A stretch of 64,000 bases of DNA, from the NCBI RefSeq assembly GCF_018678075.1, contig NZ_JAHHIR010000035.1:186001-250000 (forward strand). The letters run 5' to 3'. This stretch comes from Epibacterium ulvae. GTDB lineage: Bacteria; Pseudomonadota; Alphaproteobacteria; Rhodobacterales; Rhodobacteraceae. A program made the position numbers and the translations under genes. A model generated the notes under the pieces. The model saw nothing but the letters and a program-made list of their open reading frames with translations. It was not told the origin of the DNA and searched no databases. Below are positions 55,255 through 64,000 of the stretch, piece by piece (the first letter of the stretch is position 1; each line of letters begins with the position of its first letter).

Positions 55255-57540
55255 ATGACCCGCTTTGCTGCCCCCATCGCCGAACAGATCTGGGATATGA
55301 AATACCGTTTCAAAGAGGCTGACGGTAGCCCGATCGATGTCACGGTCGAGGACAGCTGGCGTCGCATCGCGCGCGATCTGGCACGCGCTGAGACGGATCC
55401 TGCGGCCTGGGAGGAGAAGTTCTATGGCGCGTTGGAAGATTTCAAGTATCTGCCCGCAGGTCGTATCACCGCCGGTGCCGGCACCGCGCGTCAGGTAACC
55501 TTGTTCAACTGTTTTGTGATGGGCACCGTGCCAGACAGCATGGGTGGTATTTTCGACATGCTGAAAGAGGCTGCGCTGACCATGCAGCAGGGCGGTGGCA
55601 TCGGCTACGACTTCTCGACCATTCGCCCCCGCGGTGCGGACGTCAAAGGCGTGGCGGCGGATGCCTCGGGTCCCTTGTCGTTCATGGATGTGTGGGACGC
55701 GATGTGCCGCACGATCATGTCTGCGGGCTCCCGTCGGGGTGCGATGATGGCGACCATGCGCTGTGATCACCCGGATATCGAGAACTTTATCACGGCGAAA
55801 TCCGACCCTGCACGTCTGCGCATGTTCAACATGTCAGTGCTGGTGACCGACGACTTTATGGAAGCGGTCAAGGCGGATGGCTCTTGGGAGCTGACCTTTG
55901 GCGGCAAGGTCTATCAAACGGTTCAGGCGCGCGATCTGTGGAACAAGATCATGCAGGCGACATATGATTATGCTGAGCCGGGTGTGATCTTTATCGATCG
56001 GATCAACAAGGCCAACAACCTGAACTACGTCGAAAATATCTGTGCAACCAACCCCTGCGGTGAGCAGCCGCTGCCGCCCTATGGTGCTTGTCTTCTGGGC
56101 TCGATCAACCTGGCGCGTCTGGTGAGCAACCCGTTTGAGAAAGACGCCGAGCTGGATCCCGTCGCGATGCAGGAGCTGGTCGCGACCGCCGTGCGGATGA
56201 TGGACAATGTGGTAGACGTGTCCAAATTCCCGCTGGAGGCGCAAGCACAGGAAGCCAAGAACAAGCGCAGGATCGGCCTGGGTGTCACGGGCCTGGCGGA
56301 TGCACTGCTGATGTTGGGGCTGGAATATGGCACCGACGAAGCGGCGCGTCAGACGGATCTCTGGCTGCACGCGATCGCCCGCGCCGCCTATCTGGCGTCG
56401 GTGGAATTGGCCAAGGAAAAGGGTGCGTTCCCGCTGTTTGATGCCGAGAAATATCTGGCGTCCGGCAATATGATGAACATGGATGAAGACGTCCGTGACG
56501 CCATTCGCGAACATGGTATCCGCAACGCGCTGCTGACCTCAATCGCGCCCACTGGCACCATCAGCCTTTATGCGGGCAACGTCTCTTCCGGGATCGAGCC
56601 GGTCTTTGCCTATGCTTATACCCGGAAGGTTCTGCAAAAAGATGGCAGCCGCACGGAAGAGGAAGTGGTTGATTACGCCGTCAAAATGTTCCGCGAAAAG
56701 TTCGGTGCCGACGCAAAGTTGCCCAACTATTTTGTAAACGCACAGACCCTGGCACCCGCAGCCCACGTCAAGATGCAGGCGGCGGCGCAGAAATGGATCG
56801 ACAGTTCGATTTCCAAGACGATCAACTGCCCTGAGGACATCTCCTTTGATGACTTCAAGGGCGTCTACATGCAGGCCTGGGATCAGGGGTGCAAAGGCTG
56901 CACCACCTATCGTCCCAACGACGTGACCGGTTCGGTTCTGTCCGTCTCGGAGAGCTCCGAGAAAGCACCGGGCGAGGGGGCTGAGGCACCGCAATCGGCG
57001 GAAGGCGCAGAGGTCGTCTATATGTCCGAGCCGCTGGATCGTCCGCAATCGCTGGAAGGCTCCACCTACAAGCTGAAGTGGCCGGATTCCGAACATGCGA
57101 TCTATCTGACCATCAACGATATCATCATGGGCGGCCACCGTCGTCCGTTCGAGGTCTTCATCAACTCCAAGAACATGGAACACTACGCCTGGACGCTTGC
57201 GCTCACGCGGATGATCTCAGCCGTGTTCCGTCGCGGCGGCGATGTGTCCTTTGTGGTGGAAGAGCTGAAAGCGGTGTTTGATCCGCGCGGTGGTGCCTGG
57301 GTCAAAGGCAAATACATCCCGTCGATCCTCGCAGCCATCGGTGGTGTGATTGAGACGCATATGGTCAAAATCGAATTTATCGAAGGCGAGGGCATGGGGT
57401 TGAAATCTGACCCACAGGCCGAGGTCGTAAACCTGGATCAACGCCCTGGCAAAGCCTGTCCCTCGTGTGGAGAGTTCACCCTGCAAATGGTCGAAGGCTG
57501 CATGACATGTGCAAGCTGCGGCCATTCGAAGTGTGGCTGA
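55255..57540 (+). CDS. nrdJ: Adenosylcobalamin-dependent ribonucleoside-diphosphate reductase (class II)
   Basis: 761 residues that reduce ribonucleotides to deoxyribonucleotides with a B12-derived radical, without oxygen and without a NrdB subunit. Visible elements: the first redox cysteine region AGTARQVTLFNCFVMG, GGGIGYDFSTIRPRG, the catalytic NPCGEQPLPPYGACLLGSINLARLV (finger loop with active-site Cys and Glu), and APTGTISLYAGNVSSGIEPVFAY. The C-terminus ends CPSCGEFTLQMVEGCMTCASCGHSKCG, a cysteine-rich, zinc-ribbon-like tail that also supplies electrons. A good AGGAA site precedes the ATG, and two NrdR-like boxes lie about 115-160 bases upstream. No cobalamin riboswitch was seen. Confidence 0.96.
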   Translation: MTRFAAPIAEQIWDMKYRFKEADGSPIDVTVEDSWRRIARDLARAETDPAAWEEKFYGALEDFKYLPAGRITAGAGTARQVTLFNCFVMGTVPDSMGGIFDMLKEAALTMQQGGGIGYDFSTIRPRGADVKGVAADASGPLSFMDVWDAMCRTIMSAGSRRGAMMATMRCDHPDIENFITAKSDPARLRMFNMSVLVTDDFMEAVKADGSWELTFGGKVYQTVQARDLWNKIMQATYDYAEPGVIFIDRINKANNLNYVENICATNPCGEQPLPPYGACLLGSINLARLVSNPFEKDAELDPVAMQELVATAVRMMDNVVDVSKFPLEAQAQEAKNKRRIGLGVTGLADALLMLGLEYGTDEAARQTDLWLHAIARAAYLASVELAKEKGAFPLFDAEKYLASGNMMNMDEDVRDAIREHGIRNALLTSIAPTGTISLYAGNVSSGIEPVFAYAYTRKVLQKDGSRTEEEVVDYAVKMFREKFGADAKLPNYFVNAQTLAPAAHVKMQAAAQKWIDSSISKTINCPEDISFDDFKGVYMQAWDQGCKGCTTYRPNDVTGSVLSVSESSEKAPGEGAEAPQSAEGAEVVYMSEPLDRPQSLEGSTYKLKWPDSEHAIYLTINDIIMGGHRRPFEVFINSKNMEHYAWTLALTRMISAVFRRGGDVSFVVEELKAVFDPRGGAWVKGKYIPSILAAIGGVIETHMVKIEFIEGEGMGLKSDPQAEVVNLDQRPGKACPSCGEFTLQMVEGCMTCASCGHSKCG

Positions 57541-57701
57541 TAACAGGCTGCGCTTTTGTGAATTGGCCCATAGATTTTCCATTTTTGCATAATGTAGTTC
57601 CACAAATTGGGGCATAGTGTTGAAATTTAACCAAATTACACGGTTGGACTTGCTAGCAACGCCTTCGAGCTTATTGTGACCTGAACTTTAGAGAGCAACA
57701 G

Positions 57702-58253
57702 ATGGCAAATTGGTACACGGCTGATCTCCACTTCGGTCACAAACGCATAATCGAATTTTGTAAGCGGCCTTTTGCATCGGTGGCTGAGATGAACGCGAAG
57801 ATCATCAGCAATTTTCAATCTCGCGTACAACCGGATGATGACCTGTGGGTTGTTGGCGATTTTGCCTTCGGCCAGAGTCAGAGCAGTTCTCAATTTGAAA
57901 GTTGGTTTCACGGCCTACCAGGTCGTAAACATCTGATCTTGGGTAATCATGACGATGAGGCGATAGTTTCTCTACCGTGGGAGAGTGTCGAAGATATCGC
58001 TAGGGTTGCCGATGGAACGCAGAAATTGGTTCTTTGTCACTATCCCATGATTACGTGGGATGGTGCGCGCGACGACGCGTTACAGCTCTTCGGCCATGTT
58101 CATGATCAATGGCCTGGCACACGCAACAGTGTGAATGTCGGTGTGGATCAATGGGATTTTTGTCCGGTTCAAATTGACGAAATTCGTCGGAGAGCAGCTA
58201 AGCTAGCGGTAAATAGGCATTGGGAAGATGTTGAGCATGGCAACGCATTGTAA
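57702..58253 (+). CDS. Metallophosphoesterase family protein
   Basis: 183 residues of the calcineurin-like phosphoesterase superfamily. All five motifs are visible: ADLHFGHKRII (DxH), WVVGDFAFG (GDxxx), LILGNHDDE (GNHD/E), LVLCHYPMITWDG and FGHVHDQWPG (GHxH). Dimetal ligands are therefore intact. Small standalone members of this type occur in phages and in defence or mobile regions, with unknown substrates. It starts the AT-richer segment right of nrdJ, on the plus strand, 162 bases after nrdJ, and is convergent with the large STAND gene. Confidence 0.9.
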   Translation: MANWYTADLHFGHKRIIEFCKRPFASVAEMNAKIISNFQSRVQPDDDLWVVGDFAFGQSQSSSQFESWFHGLPGRKHLILGNHDDEAIVSLPWESVEDIARVADGTQKLVLCHYPMITWDGARDDALQLFGHVHDQWPGTRNSVNVGVDQWDFCPVQIDEIRRRAAKLAVNRHWEDVEHGNAL

Positions 58254-58411: not shown

Positions 58412-61400
58412 TCAGCCAGAACCTTCCCCTTCCCGTCGACGATCTTCCTCGGTCTCAAGAGAGCATTTTCGAAACGTACCGTCCTCAAGGGTCCAAGTGC
58501 TGGTGAACCATCTTTGACCGAATGCATCATTTTTGTCGGAGTACAGTTCCTTTCCTCCGCCGATGACCCATATCGGTGCGAACTCCCTGTCTGACAAAAG
58601 ACGCACAAAAGCGTCTCTGTTGACGAGAGCGGTACTTGGTCCATTCTTTGAAGCCGAAGGATCCTTGAATATCTCGCTACCATTCGTGTCGGTGTAGATC
58701 AAATCGCGCCCATCCTTGAGCGACATATTCAAGTTTCTCATCAGCCACGAGCAAGGCAATATAACGCGCAAATTCTGCTTCAGGCTATGGTTGTAGCCAC
58801 TTGCTTCCTGTAAGAACTCCATCGTCGGACAAAGGCCCTCCACTGGGGCCATCGTCCAAGCTGGCGTAGGCTTATCAATCCATTTTCGAGCCCACTCAGT
58901 TATCCAGTCCTCGCCTGTGTCCGTGCGCCATCCTAACTCGCCAAGAAAATCCTCTGAAGATGCTTCGTTTGTGAAGCCGAGGTCATGATCGGTTGTCAGC
59001 ATTTGGCCGTCCAGGTGCTGGAGTGCGCCTGCAAGATCGTTGTTCCGAACTAAGAAGCACGTCGACCGTCGCCATGTCTTCGTTCTAATGTGCGCTGCTT
59101 CTCCGGAAGCCCCAACGCCGCTGAAGCTCTGAAAATCTCGTAGCGGCGTCCATTTCAGGCCTTGTTCATCGACTTGGAAGTCGAGAAATTCCTCGCCATC
59201 CAAAAAGTCTCGTTCGCTATCAAGCCATTCCCAAGCTTCCTCTACCGATCGTGGTGATAGAAGGGGAGCTTTGGGCATCCAGAAGGTGGGTTCATCAAAC
59301 TTCGCCCAGCCCCAATCGTGACTCTTCGTCATTAGGTGACTCGGATCCATATCGCGCAGGCGTCGAACGGTTTCCCGCAAGTGCTGTGGCCGGTCCCGTT
59401 CAACGGCTCCGCAATGGTCCGAAATACGCGCCATCAACTCCCTTAACGCGATCCACTGATATTTTTTGCCGATCCGTTCCTTCGTGTGGTTCATTCTATC
59501 GCCGCTGCAGTTGCGGTCAAAGCCCGCATGCAATTTCGCTTTCCAGCCTAAGTCATGAGCTCTGCGGCAGATCCAGCGCTGCGCCCAACCCAGATCGAAG
59601 TGTGCCGCACGGTCTGTTGTCCAGCTATCCGAGCGGTCCATTGCCCAATGCCCTGCCCGGACGCGATAGGCCTCGTACCGTTGATCGCCGAGGAGCTTGC
59701 GGAGTTTTTGTTCCATCTCTTTGTGGAGTATACCCTGCTCCGTCCCAGGGTAGCACCAATCGTGTGATGACGATCGGAGCACGATTAGCTCATCGACAAG
59801 TGCTCGTTCCTTTTCGGTGCAGGACGTTTCGAACTCGGATCGCCATGTTTGGTAAAGATCCTCTGTTGTTGGAAGGGCGGAACCCTCTTCGCCGGCTGCC
59901 CAGTTTTGGACAGCATACTTGATTACGTAACTTGCAAAATCACCGTGCAGGTCCGTCGAGCTGATTATGTCCCACGATGTTTCGGAGTTGCGGGGATCCT
60001 TGCCACGCTCCATGTCTGGAGCAAATTCAAGAGGCCATGGACTGTCGAACGGAGGCTGGAGCTGCGTATCCTTTGGAACGTCAAGTGCGCAGCAACGATG
60101 CCTAGAGTATTCGATAAGTCCGACGAGATGATCGCGCCATAGCAAGTCTACGGGCGGATTGTTCTCCACAAAGTGGCGGTTCGCGGTCACCTGGGCGATT
60201 GTGGCCAGTTCGGTATCGGTCCATGCAGATTGCAAGGCTGCACCATAGATTGCGGCGGCAAGTCTTTCACCAATGTAGGGGTCATCGATCTTATCGAAGC
60301 GACGAAGCAACTCCTGACCACATTGGGGAGACGCGATAAGCAGAGCAACCAGGGCTTTGGTGGCGCGATCCCTTGTGCGTCGATAAGTTGTGGAAAGACA
60401 CCAAGTTAGAAGGACCGCAGCGTTTGTAGCAGCTTCGTCATCCAATGAACCAGATTTTGCGTCCATTGCCCAATCCATAAGGTCGTGCAGTGGAGTATCG
60501 AGTTCCTCCTCACCTTCTCGTCCGTCGTCCGCAGACTCGCCAGCATAGCAAGACCATTCGGCATCCCTCTCAGGCATCGGCAAGCGCAGAAGGTCTTGAT
60601 GTAATGCATTCAGTCCAAAAGGCCCGTCTGTCCCGAGCGCGAGTTGGATTCGAGCGTTCCAAATCTCATCGGGGTCAACCCACTCTTCCAGCAATTCAAA
60701 GCTGCGCTCCGTTACACTCTCGCGCCGGCGCAAAGTAATGTTTTCTCGAGAGATACAAGACATCAACCAGCGGTCTGCGTCTTTGACCGCGTCCGGAAGT
60801 TCCACGCCAGTCCGTTCCGGCAATTGAATTGCGAGAGCGTCGAGGACGCCCTGTGGAGCACCTTGGCGTGAGCATGCTTTGAAAAGCGCAATGTCGTGCA
60901 AAAGCGGCGATGGCAAGGTCTCGTTGATCAGTGTCGCGTCAAGGATGGCTTGCGCGGCCACATGGTCGCCGAACCGCTCAAAGCTAAAGCGGACATATTC
61001 ACTATCTTCGCCATTCTCGCGGATCGGCTCTATTGCGAGAAGGCCTTCGTCGCAGAGCGCTTCGAGCAGATCGCTATCGAGGCTGGGATTGTTGCCGCAG
61101 ATGGGTGCAAGAAGTTCTGCTGCTCGATCATACTCAATGAGAGGATCGGTAGTTGTAGCGATCTCCTTGGCAAGGATTTCGATCGCTTTGACAGGGTATC
61201 TCCGGCGCGGAGCAAGTTTTAAGTGAGCTTCCACTGAATCGCAGAGCGCGCCTCGGTACATCTTAAAAATTTCTGTTACGCCTTGCATTCCCTTGGGAAA
61301 GCCCTTCTTGCCTTGGCGATCCAAAGCGTCGCAGCAGACTTTCAAAAACAGCGGGTTGCGGAGTTCGTTCGGTAGAAATGGTTGATCCAGCAGCAGGATA

Positions 61401-62863
61401 TTACGCAGAGAAAGAAATTTGCGTGCATCGCGCATCGAGAACCCAGAGTGTTCGAGTCGCGGCAGTTTGGTATCGTCCAAATGCGACGGCACAATCTGTG
61501 CCAGATAGGTCGACCGGCAGGAAAGAACTATGACCACGTTGGGATATGCTTCTGCGTCTTTGAGAAAGGCGGCTAAACGGCTCGGCCAGATCTCGCCTCC
61601 CTTGCGCTCGTTAATCGCGTCGATACAAAGCATGGCCCTGACACCAGCAGCTTCGCCAGCGGCGTCGAGCGCCCCAAGCAATTGGTCTCGCGTGTAATCA
61701 AGTGGAAGTCCCAATTGGCTCGAAATCTGGGGCCAGATTTCCGCATCGGTCAACTGGCCACCGAGCAACAACACCGCGGGTCGTTTCTTGTTCAGCTGAT
61801 GGCTGCACGCATCGGCGAGAAGGTGGGACTTTCCGCTGCCAGCTTCGCCGGTGATAAGCATATGAGGAATGACGGCCATTTCCCAAGCTCTAGCCTGCAG
61901 CGTCGCAGAGACCCGCTCCAGTTTTTCGAGCGCGCGACGCGCGTCATGCGTCTGGTTCTTCTTTGTTTTTTTCTCATCACTGCTTGTAGAGTATGCTTCA
62001 CGGATCTCATCGTGGTATTTTCGCTCTATAATATCTAACCCTTGATCCAGCACATTGCGCCAGTGGTCGACCGGCCAAGTTTGATGAGGAAGTTCGTCAA
62101 CATCATCCAATAATGCGCCGAGCGCAGACATCGTATCGGCGTCTTCGCGTGAGAGCACGAAAGTAGTCTGAAACTCGTTGCAGGCTTCTCGAAGCTCGCT
62201 GCGATGATTGCGCAATGAGGTTAATAGCTCAGGGTTCCGAGTGGCTCCAAGGAGCGCGCGGCGGATGGGAATTTCCACGCTGGTTTCGTGAGTATAGCGA
62301 TGGCCAAGAGCAGCTTTGCTACGCTCGAACTGATCCTGAAACCAAACAGGCGAGAGGAATTGACTCTCGAACCAGTAACGGATGCGACCTGCATGATGGC
62401 CACTTGGGTTGGTCAACTTCGTCTTAAGCGCGGAAGCGTCCCAGAGATCGATTTCGAGTTGTCGGTCCTGCTTGGCTGCTTCCGCGACTTCATTGTTTCG
62501 CCACCTCTCGAACGCCTCCAGCTGTGTCTCATTGGAGGAAAAGGGATCCGACCGGTCAAAGGGGAGGCAAACACAGATCTTGGTTAGATTAGGGTGCTTT
62601 TTGAGAGCGCTCTTGACTGAACTGTTCAAGCTACGCTCCAAATTGTTATCGAACCGCCAAGAGTATTTGGCCTGCCAACCGCATTCTGTTCCGTCGGAAA
62701 AGCGCGTGAAACACTCAAGGCCACCGTCTTTTCCTGTACCCTTTCGATGAAATCGCGCGCCGCCCGGAACTGGCTCCAAAGCTGCGAGTTGGCACACGAG
62801 TTCCTCGAATCCGGTCGAGGCTTTCCCGTCTATGGTTCTGATGGCCTTGAAATCGATGTTCAT
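58412..62863 (-). CDS. STAND-type ATPase with N-terminal PD-(D/E)xK nuclease-like domain (Avs-like defence protein)
   Basis: 1,483 residues from ATG 62863 (a TTG 30 bases upstream opens the frame further). Residues 1-70 carry a Mrr/Cap4-like nuclease pattern: FEELVCQLAAL, then D46-G-G-L-E50 and Q64-A-K66. The middle holds an ATPase with Walker A GEAGSGKSHLL (about residue 337) and Walker B AMLCIDAINERKGG (about 411), followed by winged-helix-like segments. The last ~1,000 residues are mainly helical, without a recognised domain; near residue 1,200 they contain ERIGKKYQWIALRELMARISDHC. Nuclease + STAND + very long sensor is the layout of Avs (AVAST) anti-phage proteins. Family-level assignment (Avs1-4 or other) is not possible here. 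Confidence 0.78.
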   Translation of the reverse strand: MNIDFKAIRTIDGKASTGFEELVCQLAALEPVPGGARFHRKGTGKDGGLECFTRFSDGTECGWQAKYSWRFDNNLERSLNSSVKSALKKHPNLTKICVCLPFDRSDPFSSNETQLEAFERWRNNEVAEAAKQDRQLEIDLWDASALKTKLTNPSGHHAGRIRYWFESQFLSPVWFQDQFERSKAALGHRYTHETSVEIPIRRALLGATRNPELLTSLRNHRSELREACNEFQTTFVLSREDADTMSALGALLDDVDELPHQTWPVDHWRNVLDQGLDIIERKYHDEIREAYSTSSDEKKTKKNQTHDARRALEKLERVSATLQARAWEMAVIPHMLITGEAGSGKSHLLADACSHQLNKKRPAVLLLGGQLTDAEIWPQISSQLGLPLDYTRDQLLGALDAAGEAAGVRAMLCIDAINERKGGEIWPSRLAAFLKDAEAYPNVVIVLSCRSTYLAQIVPSHLDDTKLPRLEHSGFSMRDARKFLSLRNILLLDQPFLPNELRNPLFLKVCCDALDRQGKKGFPKGMQGVTEIFKMYRGALCDSVEAHLKLAPRRRYPVKAIEILAKEIATTTDPLIEYDRAAELLAPICGNNPSLDSDLLEALCDEGLLAIEPIRENGEDSEYVRFSFERFGDHVAAQAILDATLINETLPSPLLHDIALFKACSRQGAPQGVLDALAIQLPERTGVELPDAVKDADRWLMSCISRENITLRRRESVTERSFELLEEWVDPDEIWNARIQLALGTDGPFGLNALHQDLLRLPMPERDAEWSCYAGESADDGREGEEELDTPLHDLMDWAMDAKSGSLDDEAATNAAVLLTWCLSTTYRRTRDRATKALVALLIASPQCGQELLRRFDKIDDPYIGERLAAAIYGAALQSAWTDTELATIAQVTANRHFVENNPPVDLLWRDHLVGLIEYSRHRCCALDVPKDTQLQPPFDSPWPLEFAPDMERGKDPRNSETSWDIISSTDLHGDFASYVIKYAVQNWAAGEEGSALPTTEDLYQTWRSEFETSCTEKERALVDELIVLRSSSHDWCYPGTEQGILHKEMEQKLRKLLGDQRYEAYRVRAGHWAMDRSDSWTTDRAAHFDLGWAQRWICRRAHDLGWKAKLHAGFDRNCSGDRMNHTKERIGKKYQWIALRELMARISDHCGAVERDRPQHLRETVRRLRDMDPSHLMTKSHDWGWAKFDEPTFWMPKAPLLSPRSVEEAWEWLDSERDFLDGEEFLDFQVDEQGLKWTPLRDFQSFSGVGASGEAAHIRTKTWRRSTCFLVRNNDLAGALQHLDGQMLTTDHDLGFTNEASSEDFLGELGWRTDTGEDWITEWARKWIDKPTPAWTMAPVEGLCPTMEFLQEASGYNHSLKQNLRVILPCSWLMRNLNMSLKDGRDLIYTDTNGSEIFKDPSASKNGPSTALVNRDAFVRLLSDREFAPIWVIGGGKELYSDKNDAFGQRWFTSTWTLEDGTFRKCSLETEEDRRREGEGSG

Positions 62864-63072: not shown

Positions 63073-64000
63073 CTAGGTCCCTGCAGGGCCAGCCGTCACG
63101 ACCTCGTCCTCGGAAACCCATCCTTTTGAAATCAAAAAGTCGCGGATCGTGTTAGGAGCCTCGGAATAGAGCACAAGCGCTAGGCTCTCTTCCGCACGGG
63201 TGGAGGTAACGTAAAGCAAACGGCGGGTGCGTTCGATTGTGGTTTCTTCGCCCTGAGCTGCCTTCTTTTGAGAGGCAGGGGACAAGCTCTTCACTTCAAA
63301 AAAGGTCTCGTATGAAGCAAGACCCTTGAAGCGTGTGTGTTCGTCATCGGCGATCACCATCACCCTGGGAAATTCGAGCCCCTTTACCCCTTGGTGAGTG
63401 CCATAAGGGCTGCGATCTTCGACATAGGCAAGGTAGCGCTCCACCTGAGAAAACGGGGCCGCAAGCGCCTGGGTCCAGGCTTCTGTGATGTTGGTTTTGG
63501 GGGGTGAAGTATTTTCTGGAGCGGTCAAGTCTAGCCCGTCGAATACGGAACCAAGCTCGGCAATGAAATCGGCCATATCGTCAGCTACGGGACCATTTTC
63601 CGGCAAACACGGGCGCAGTTGGTCGGGGATCGGAAACAACTGGTGCTCGGCCACAATCGCCAAAACTTCGGCACAACTCGGATCACGGTCGTCTGCAAAA
63701 AGTGTCATCAGCGCTGTAACGCCTGCGCTCGCTGCCGTTAGGCCAGTTGCCTGGTCCCCGCGCGCCCCACGGATGGCTTTCTTATCGACCAGTGGCGAGC
63801 TGTCGCGCAGCACCGCCATCGCCGCAAAGATATCGCCGGCCCTTTGCGCAGTCACCAATGGCAACACACGATGGGTGAAAAGCCGCATTGCGGGCAATGT
63901 ACCAGCGCGAAACCCATCCTTGAGCTTGTCGGGTTTGCTCAATGGCTCAAACAGTTCACTAAAACCAAGACGCGCGGCGGCCATGTGACGCTCGATCGTA
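63073..64000 (-). CDS. UvrD/Rep-like superfamily 1 helicase, C-terminal part (partial)
   Basis: The frame is open at the right edge (TIERHMAAARLGFSELFEPL is its first visible stretch), so only the C-terminal ~308 residues are seen. The end carries superfamily 1 helicase motifs: THQGVKGLEFPRVMVIADDEHTRF (motif V region) and TTIERTRRLLYVTSTRAEESLALVLYS (motif VI with the arginine finger). The N-terminal Walker motifs lie outside. The YETFFEVKSLSP... and RTRRLLYVTSTRAEESLALV pattern is that of UvrD-like proteins often paired with an OLD/AAA nuclease in defence loci such as Gabija. The partner, if any, would lie beyond the right edge. Confidence 0.85.
   Translation of the reverse strand, partial: TIERHMAAARLGFSELFEPLSKPDKLKDGFRAGTLPAMRLFTHRVLPLVTAQRAGDIFAAMAVLRDSSPLVDKKAIRGARGDQATGLTAASAGVTALMTLFADDRDPSCAEVLAIVAEHQLFPIPDQLRPCLPENGPVADDMADFIAELGSVFDGLDLTAPENTSPPKTNITEAWTQALAAPFSQVERYLAYVEDRSPYGTHQGVKGLEFPRVMVIADDEHTRFKGLASYETFFEVKSLSPASQKKAAQGEETTIERTRRLLYVTSTRAEESLALVLYSEAPNTIRDFLISKGWVSEDEVVTAGPAGT

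What the first reader, a model, noticed from the sequence alone, without database searches (positions are those of the whole stretch)
58412..62863. Large nuclease-STAND ATPase with an unassigned >1,000-residue sensor region
The sequence shows a PD-(D/E)xK-like N-terminus (D46...E50, Q64-A-K66), Walker A at about residue 337 and an IDAINE-type Walker B at about 411, then a very long helical C-terminus. STAND proteins of this layout (Avs family) sense phage proteins directly and release a nuclease. The C-terminal region fits no domain I recognise, so the trigger may be new. It sits in an AT-richer accessory stretch beside a UvrD-like helicase.
Basis: partly seen in the sequence, partly recalled or inferred. 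Interest (0 to 1): 0.75.

Follow-up and report, generated by a model that had tools for sequence, protein, structure and literature searches.

The report
Nuclease-armed Avs2 phage sensor
The gene encodes a bacterial immune protein of the known Avs2 type, which is thought to recognise a phage DNA-packaging protein and then cut DNA so that the infected cell dies before the phage can spread; the long tail that looked unfamiliar is the known Avs2 sensor.

Summary
The gene is real: 58412-62863, MINUS strand, 1,483 aa. It is an Avs2 (antiviral STAND) protein. PADLOC's Avs2 profile covers residues 1-1475 (1,328 bits); solved Avs2 9o4e aligns to residues 170-1462 (E 6e-86). So the ">1,000-residue unassigned sensor" is the known Avs2 sensor; the best fold match of its model is Avs3 bound to phage terminase. 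The N-terminus is a PD-(D/E)xK-like nuclease closest to that of Avs4; the solved Avs2 carries a different N-terminal domain. The neighbouring "UvrD helicase" is GajB; GajA and Tn7-like genes follow outside the window. Full-length copies occur in 2 of 18 congeners, so it is accessory. It is a new member of a known kind, below NCBI's strict Avs2 naming cut-off (686 of 1,000 bits). The trigger is inferred: large terminase most likely, portal possible. One open point is worth a test: six of the seven Avs2 carriers examined in and near this family also encode a gene-transfer-agent marker and a terminase of their own; the seventh does not.

The parts
58412..62863 (-). Avs2 gene, 1,483 aa, single-gene anti-phage STAND system
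   Evidence: ORF; PADLOC Avs2 1,328 bits over residues 1-1475; 9o4e Avs2 E 6e-86; dN/dS about 0.17
62369..62863 (-). residues 1-165: PD-(D/E)xK-like nuclease effector, Avs4-type; E20, D46, E50, Q64, K66 invariant
   Evidence: profile match to Avs4 8dgf E 5.7e-5; invariant residues; model best match 8dgf Z 11.8 over 158 aa
61874..62368 (-). residues 166-330: linker predicted mostly helical, low confidence
   Evidence: AlphaFold2 model
61184..61873 (-). residues 331-560: STAND NTPase; Walker A GEAGSGKS (339-346), Walker B LCIDAINE (D415)
   Evidence: AAA_16/AAA_22 below Pfam cut-off; AAA_16 in 10 of 10 homologues at E up to 0.1; invariant motifs
58415..61183 (-). residues 561-1483: Avs2 sensor, helical repeats followed by a mixed, beta-containing end; conserved ERIGKKYQ motif at 1129-1136
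   Evidence: P0001 to 9o4e through residue 1462; model match to Avs3 with terminase, Z 14.6 over 473 aa; motif
63073..64000 (-). GajB of Gabija, cut by the window end (whole gene L002:8074-10023, 649 aa; GajA follows at L002:10020-12245)
   Evidence: PADLOC GajB 756 bits, GajA 860 bits
57702..58253 (+). small metallophosphoesterase between nrdJ and avs2 (neighbour, not part of the system)
   Evidence: Pfam Metallophos just over its cut-off
55255..57540 (+). vitamin-B12-type ribonucleotide reductase, called nrdJ here (name from recall): conserved edge of the variable region
   Evidence: present at full length in 12 of 18 congeners; DNA similarity ends at the gene's end

Best explanation
A one-gene Avs2-class antiviral STAND system with a nuclease effector. 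At rest the protein is inactive. When a phage makes its DNA-packaging proteins, the C-terminal sensor (about residues 560-1483) binds one of them, most likely the large terminase subunit. ATP-dependent assembly of the central NTPase then brings several N-terminal PD-(D/E)xK nuclease domains together, and they cut DNA, so that infection aborts. Shown here: the gene, the domain order, homology to Avs2 over the whole length, the intact nuclease and Walker residues, the fold matches, purifying selection and accessory distribution. Inferred from the family: ligand binding, oligomerisation, DNA cleavage and abortive infection. Not known: which packaging protein is the trigger.
For: PADLOC Avs2 models take all six strong hits, the best at 1,328 bits over residues 1-1475; the next non-Avs2 model has E 0.012. 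Solved Avs2 9o4e E 6e-86 over 170-1462, and 4e-273 with a profile of 10 homologues. N-terminal profile to Avs4 8dgf E 5.7e-5. Nuclease model: 8dgf Z 11.8, 158 aa, 4.2 A; the next rows that cover the nuclease part are LlaBIII, BspD6I, MspJI and FokI at Z 8.4-8.8. Sensor model: best match is Avs3 bound to phage terminase, Z 14.6, against 9.1 for the next row. Catalytic and Walker residues invariant in 10 of 10. dN/dS about 0.17. Next to Gabija; in a relative next to SIR2-HerA genes. Avs1-3 to terminase: passages.
Against: NCBIfam's Avs2 equivalog scores 685.8 bits against a cut-off of 1,000, so function in this branch is extrapolated. Pfam finds nothing in the nuclease region and only sub-threshold AAA hits. 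Both models have low mean confidence (pLDDT 63.5 and 66) and rest on few distinct sequences (6 and 10 rows, four of each near-identical). The Avs3 superposition has rmsd 11.1 A and Foldseek TM 0.20; the tool warns that Z up to about 13 can be common for helical repeats. In one search ranks 2-3 are helical bundles (Z 9.9, 9.4) on residues 213-328. An A. faecalis Avs2 homologue was reported to be triggered by a portal protein, and an Avs2 by Ksap1.
Confidence: 0.78

Rival explanations
1. Same architecture, but the trigger in this branch is the phage portal protein (as for Avs4 and reportedly the A. faecalis Avs2 homologue), not the large terminase.
For: Passages in PMC13141931 report that a lambda portal plasmid is excluded by avs2+ but not avs2-deleted A. 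faecalis. The nuclease half of the window protein is Avs4-like.
Against: The sensor half is homologous to Avs2 9o4e, and its model is closest to terminase-bound Avs3. Portal-bound Avs4 (8dgf) is not among the 50 rows shown for the sensor model, which by itself excludes nothing. Avs1-3 are reported to sense terminase.
Confidence: 0.15
2. The sensor recognises a phage protein that is neither terminase nor portal, i.e. a new trigger.
For: The branch scores below the NCBI Avs2 naming cut-off. Ksap1 shows that an Avs2 can have another trigger.
Against: The sensor is homologous over nearly its whole length to known Avs2; nothing specific points to another ligand.
Confidence: 0.1
3. A housekeeping or core-genome STAND ATPase unrelated to phage defence.
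For: Intact gene under purifying selection.
Against: Full length in only 2 of 18 congeners and found in 4 of 390 genomes of the order. Near-identical copies sit at other places with different neighbours. It lies beside Gabija.
Confidence: 0.02

Closest known systems
Avs2 (AVAST type 2), solved as PDB 9o4e
   Same: STAND NTPase and C-terminal sensor are homologous (E 6e-86, residues 170-1462); nearly the same total length (1,483 and 1,484 aa).
   Different: The N-terminal effector differs: the 9o4e N-terminus matches that of L022 from the viral collection (E 1e-104) and is not found by the window's nuclease profile. The window protein is below the NCBIfam Avs2 cut-off.
Avs4, PDB 8dgf
   Same: N-terminal nuclease domain: profile E 5.7e-5, model Z 11.8 over 158 aa.
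   Different: No NCBIfam Avs4 hit for this protein at E up to 10; body and sensor are Avs2.
Avs3 bound to terminase, PDB 8dgc
   Same: Best fold match of the sensor model (Z 14.6, 473 aa).
   Different: No sequence match to the profiles (at E up to 1, at E up to 10); the solved chain is about 550 residues longer; 13% identity in the superposition.
PADLOC Avs2 subfamily PDLC02164
   Same: 1,328 bits, residues 1-1475 of 1,483 on profile positions 2-1499 of 1,504: nuclease-bearing Avs2 of this layout is already catalogued.
   Different: Nothing in the model conflicts. In the listings of my searches I saw no study placed in this subfamily; whether the A. faecalis Avs2 belongs to it I could not determine.

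Membership tests
Avs2 (AVAST type 2, broad sense as in PADLOC) | whole-length match to an Avs2 profile | tested here: met
   PDLC02164 1,328 bits, residues 1-1475; six Avs2 models hit and no other model below E 0.01
Avs2 (AVAST type 2, broad sense as in PADLOC) | central STAND-type P-loop NTPase with intact Walker A and B | tested here: met
   G339-K345 and D415/E419 invariant in 10 of 10; AAA_16 in 10 of 10 at E up to 0.1, below the curated cut-off for this protein
Avs2 (AVAST type 2, broad sense as in PADLOC) | C-terminal sensor homologous to that of a solved Avs2 | tested here: met
   9o4e, residues 170-1462, E 6e-86; 4e-273 with profile A1
Avs2 (AVAST type 2, broad sense as in PADLOC) | activation by phage large terminase subunit | not testable with these tools
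   needs binding or co-expression experiments; only the fold match to terminase-bound Avs3
NCBIfam NF041813 equivalog (narrow naming class Avs2) | score of at least 1,000 bits | tested here: not met
   685.8 bits over residues 185-1463: not named Avs2 under NCBI's strict rule
PD-(D/E)xK nuclease superfamily | core alpha-beta-beta-beta-alpha-beta fold with acidic and Q/E-x-K active-site residues (definition recalled) | tested here: met
   model order H15-28 E37-40 E51-54 E60-65 H73-89 E93-99; D46, E50, Q64, K66 invariant; restriction-endonuclease matches Z 8.4-8.8; no Pfam family hit
Avs4 (AVAST type 4) | whole-length match to an Avs4 profile | tested here: not met
   no NF041815 hit for this protein at E up to 10; one of the 10 homologues in A1 does hit it (E 1.2e-8); for the window protein similarity to Avs4 is confined to the N-terminal nuclease
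Gabija (neighbouring genes) | GajA (OLD-like ATPase-TOPRIM) with GajB (UvrD-like helicase) | tested here: met
   GajA 860 bits and GajB 756 bits, adjacent; OLD-like TOPRIM and UvrD domains

The most novel reading that the evidence does not exclude
This Avs2 branch lives with a permanent self-encoded version of its presumed trigger: the host's gene transfer agent makes a large terminase and a portal. Either its sensor has been tuned to ignore the agent's packaging proteins, or it is wired to them and limits or finishes off the cells that produce the agent.
Probability: 0.08. Interest if true: 0.7.

Novelty: new member of a known kind. Interest (0 to 1): 0.3.

Why it matters
As a protein it adds an alphaproteobacterial Avs2 that pairs an Avs4-type nuclease with an Avs2 sensor, consistent with effector swapping among Avs proteins. 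It could also make an open question testable. [quoted passage not shown] The window's genome holds a terminase/portal-sensing class of immune protein together with a gene transfer agent.

Tried and rejected
New sensor domain: rejected; the region is homologous to the Avs2 sensor.

Transposon ends: I looked for inverted 20-mers between the nrdJ-avs2 side and the rest of the region and for repeats in the GajA-TnsA gap. No convincing ends were found, so I do not claim that avs2 and Gabija lie inside the Tn7-like element; they lie next to its genes.

Depletion of Avs2 in Rhodobacterales because of gene transfer agents: the same profile found 4 of 390 genomes of the order and 11 of 398 of the phylum. 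Leaving the window's own genome out of both (3 of 389, 10 of 397), Fisher p is 0.09, and the phylum draw itself contains some genomes of the family. Inconclusive; no control gene was run. A first search of the order with the protein itself gave 5 of 390, one of them the short relic in G012.

Gene transfer agent in every carrier: not so. Seven genomes other than the relic's were examined. Six have GTA_TIM and Terminase_6C; G031, with a more distant partial Avs2 match at 29% identity, has neither.

Viral relatives: two single-sequence scans of the viral collection found none.

9o4e does not appear in the fold-library rows shown; I draw nothing from that. The E-value of 0 is inflated, because alignment A4 contains L022, whose N-terminus is near that of 9o4e; the independent values are those.

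Corrected on checking: I had first judged from ORF lists that only L034, L036 and L037 hold Tns genes. A tblastn with the window genome's own Tns proteins also found TnsA and TnsB relatives in L032, cut by the end of the fetched stretch, and a TniQ relative in L039. Pfam alone did not show TnsA in L032, L034 or L036.

Papers: the Avs pattern-recognition paper (10.1126/science.abm4096) is not held. I read passages only of PMC12724215, PMC12931631, PMC13236601 and PMC13141931; other Avs facts are recalled. Searches for 'Tn7-like' with 'nrdJ' and 'defense' and for 'KpAvs2' found 0 papers.
Full report
WHAT IS THERE. The open frame at 58412-62863 is real and lies on the minus strand; it encodes 1,483 residues. 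Three copies in other genomes are 91-93% identical in protein, with dN/dS of about 0.17 against the window copy over the gene and 0.13-0.26 in each domain.

WHAT IT IS. PADLOC's Avs2 models take all six strong hits; the best, PDLC02164, scores 1,328 bits over residues 1-1475, and the best non-Avs2 model has E 0.012. The sequence alone finds one solved structure at E up to 1, Avs2 9o4e, E 6e-86, residues 170-1462; a profile of 10 homologues gives 4e-273. The region described as unassigned is therefore the Avs2 sensor. NCBI's narrower Avs2 equivalog model scores 685.8 bits against a cut-off of 1,000, so this is a divergent branch of Avs2 in the broad sense and would not be named Avs2 by NCBI's rule.

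THE NUCLEASE. Pfam has no match to residues 1-165. A profile of 10 N-termini finds the N-terminus of Avs4 8dgf (E 5.7e-5) and not that of 9o4e. The predicted model (6 sequences, four of them near-identical; pLDDT about 60-94 over residues 21-150, mean 63.5 over all) has the PD-(D/E)xK order of helices and strands. Its best fold match is 8dgf (Z 11.8, 158 residues, 4.2 A). Ranks 2 and 3 are helical bundles on residues 213-328; the next rows on the nuclease part are restriction endonucleases at Z 8.4-8.8. The solved Avs2 has another N-terminus, shared with L022 from the viral collection (E 1e-104). So Avs2 bodies occur with at least two effectors, and the window protein combines an Avs4-type nuclease with an Avs2 body. 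This layout is already in PADLOC's models and is not new in itself.

THE SENSOR AND THE TRIGGER. The model of residues 560-1483 (10 sequences, mean pLDDT 66) is helical to about residue 1215 and then mixed with much beta. Its best match is Avs3 bound to phage terminase: Foldseek E 6e-4 with a low TM of 0.20; VIA-align Z 14.6 over 473 residues, with a large rmsd of 11.1 A, against Z 9.1 for the next row. Avs1-3 are reported to sense the large terminase and Avs4 the portal; an Avs2 also binds Ksap1 (passages). Against a simple reading, an Avs2 homologue of Alcaligenes faecalis was reported to respond to a lambda portal protein (passages). I put terminase at roughly two in three for this protein; that figure is a judgement.

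DISTRIBUTION. Full-length avs2 of this kind is in 2 of 18 genomes of the genus, with a 66-residue relic in a third. The Avs2 profile finds 4 of 390 genomes of the order and 11 of 398 of the phylum. Among plasmid records 60 have a match, all under 60% identity, 38 of them Burkholderia, and 44 cover at least 80% of the protein. Among phage records one has a partial match.

SURROUNDINGS. The UvrD-like neighbour is GajB, followed by GajA, i.e. Gabija, and then genes for TnsA, TnsB, TnsC/TniB and TniQ. The second carrier in the genus, G003, has avs2 on a contig other than that of its nrdJ. The shared DNA between copies is sharply bounded: about 4.66 kb holding avs2 alone with L007 and L008, and 9.1 kb holding avs2 and Gabija with L009. 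In L007 and L008 the upstream neighbours are SIR2 and HerA genes (ORFs; profiles for the L008 pair). So avs2 appears to travel as a module among defence genes.

A VARIABLE SITE BESIDE nrdJ. The ribonucleotide reductase gene upstream is full length in 12 of 18 congeners. I fetched what lies beyond it in the other 11; five stretches are 1.3-3.4 kb, cut by a contig edge, and six are 14.5-15 kb. DNA similarity to the window's region stops at the end of the gene in all 11, apart from phosphoesterase genes and short scraps. Relatives of the window genome's TnsA and TnsB proteins lie in four of the six long stretches (L032, L034, L036, L037), with TnsC and TniQ in three of them; L038 and L041 have none, and of the five short ones L039 has a TniQ relative (domains). 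With the window's own site that makes 5 of 7 long sites with Tn7-like genes. PADLOC profiles, run on 6 chosen proteins from four of these stretches, found Lamassu genes (L034), type III CRISPR-like genes (L036) and an RT-associated or GajB-like helicase (L037), and nothing for the one protein tested from L032; L038 and L041 were not scanned with PADLOC. I could not find the element's ends.

SELF-ENCODED PACKAGING PROTEINS. The host genome has a gene-transfer-agent cluster: terminase, portal, protease, capsid, tail genes and a GTA_TIM protein at 496 bits. Of seven Avs2-bearing genomes examined, six have both GTA_TIM and a Terminase_6C gene and one, G031, has neither. In the three other genomes with 91-93% copies the terminase is 64-68% identical to the window genome's and sits beside a portal gene. 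If the trigger is terminase or portal, this immune protein must either ignore the agent's version or be set off by it. Co-occurrence alone says little, since such agents are widespread in this order (recalled). A literature search with gene transfer agent, defense system, autoimmunity and terminase found one paper; the passages I read of it concern a CARD-NLR-like system in Caulobacter that promotes release of the agent, and do not treat Avs2.

VERDICT. Ordinary as a discovery; useful as a test case for how an Avs2 coexists with a gene transfer agent.

Noticed in passing
window 55255-58253 and L032, L034, L036, L037, L039: The stretch after the B12-type ribonucleotide reductase gene is a variable site in this genus; 5 of 7 long sites (the window's included) hold Tn7-like tns genes, in four cases with different defence-type genes nearby (Avs2 and Gabija, Lamassu, type III CRISPR-like, RT-associated/GajB-like helicase).
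   Followed up: partly
L048 (G000:C86:165000-183000): Gene-transfer-agent cluster with its own terminase and portal in the host; GTA_TIM and Terminase_6C in six of seven Avs2 carriers examined.
   Followed up: partly
L007:2674-5490 and L008:2679-5477: SIR2 and HerA genes lie directly upstream of the near-identical avs2 in two other genomes, where the window has Gabija: defence modules exchanged around one avs2 cassette.
   Followed up: partly
L003:5282-6004: A second small metallophosphoesterase gene lies about 20 kb further on in the host contig (53% identical to the first in protein); its DNA is 86% identical to one beside nrdJ in G006 (L034). It may be a passenger of these elements.
   Followed up: no
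L003:10912-14848: A second set of tnsB/tnsC/tniQ relatives (TniQ 71 bits; only residues 433-680 of TnsB matched), apparently incomplete, suggesting stacked insertions.
   Followed up: partly
L042:6907-7074: A short avs2 relic (66 residues, 65% identical, one stop) between unrelated genes in G012, a sign of gene loss.
   Followed up: no
L022, L023, L028 (viral contigs) and L020 (Vibrio parahaemolyticus plasmid): Avs2 relatives with another N-terminus, which in L022 is that of solved 9o4e and looks the same by eye in the others: effector exchange within Avs2.
   Followed up: partly
L021:4989-5561 (Sphingomonas hankookensis plasmid): A 190-residue open frame that is little more than the nuclease domain (about 42% identical), next to an IS110 transposase gene: either a stand-alone nuclease or a remnant.
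   Followed up: no
L011 (G228) and L012/L013 (G360): More distant full-length Avs2 in two other genera of the family (25-30% identity), so more than one Avs2 branch circulates there.
   Followed up: no
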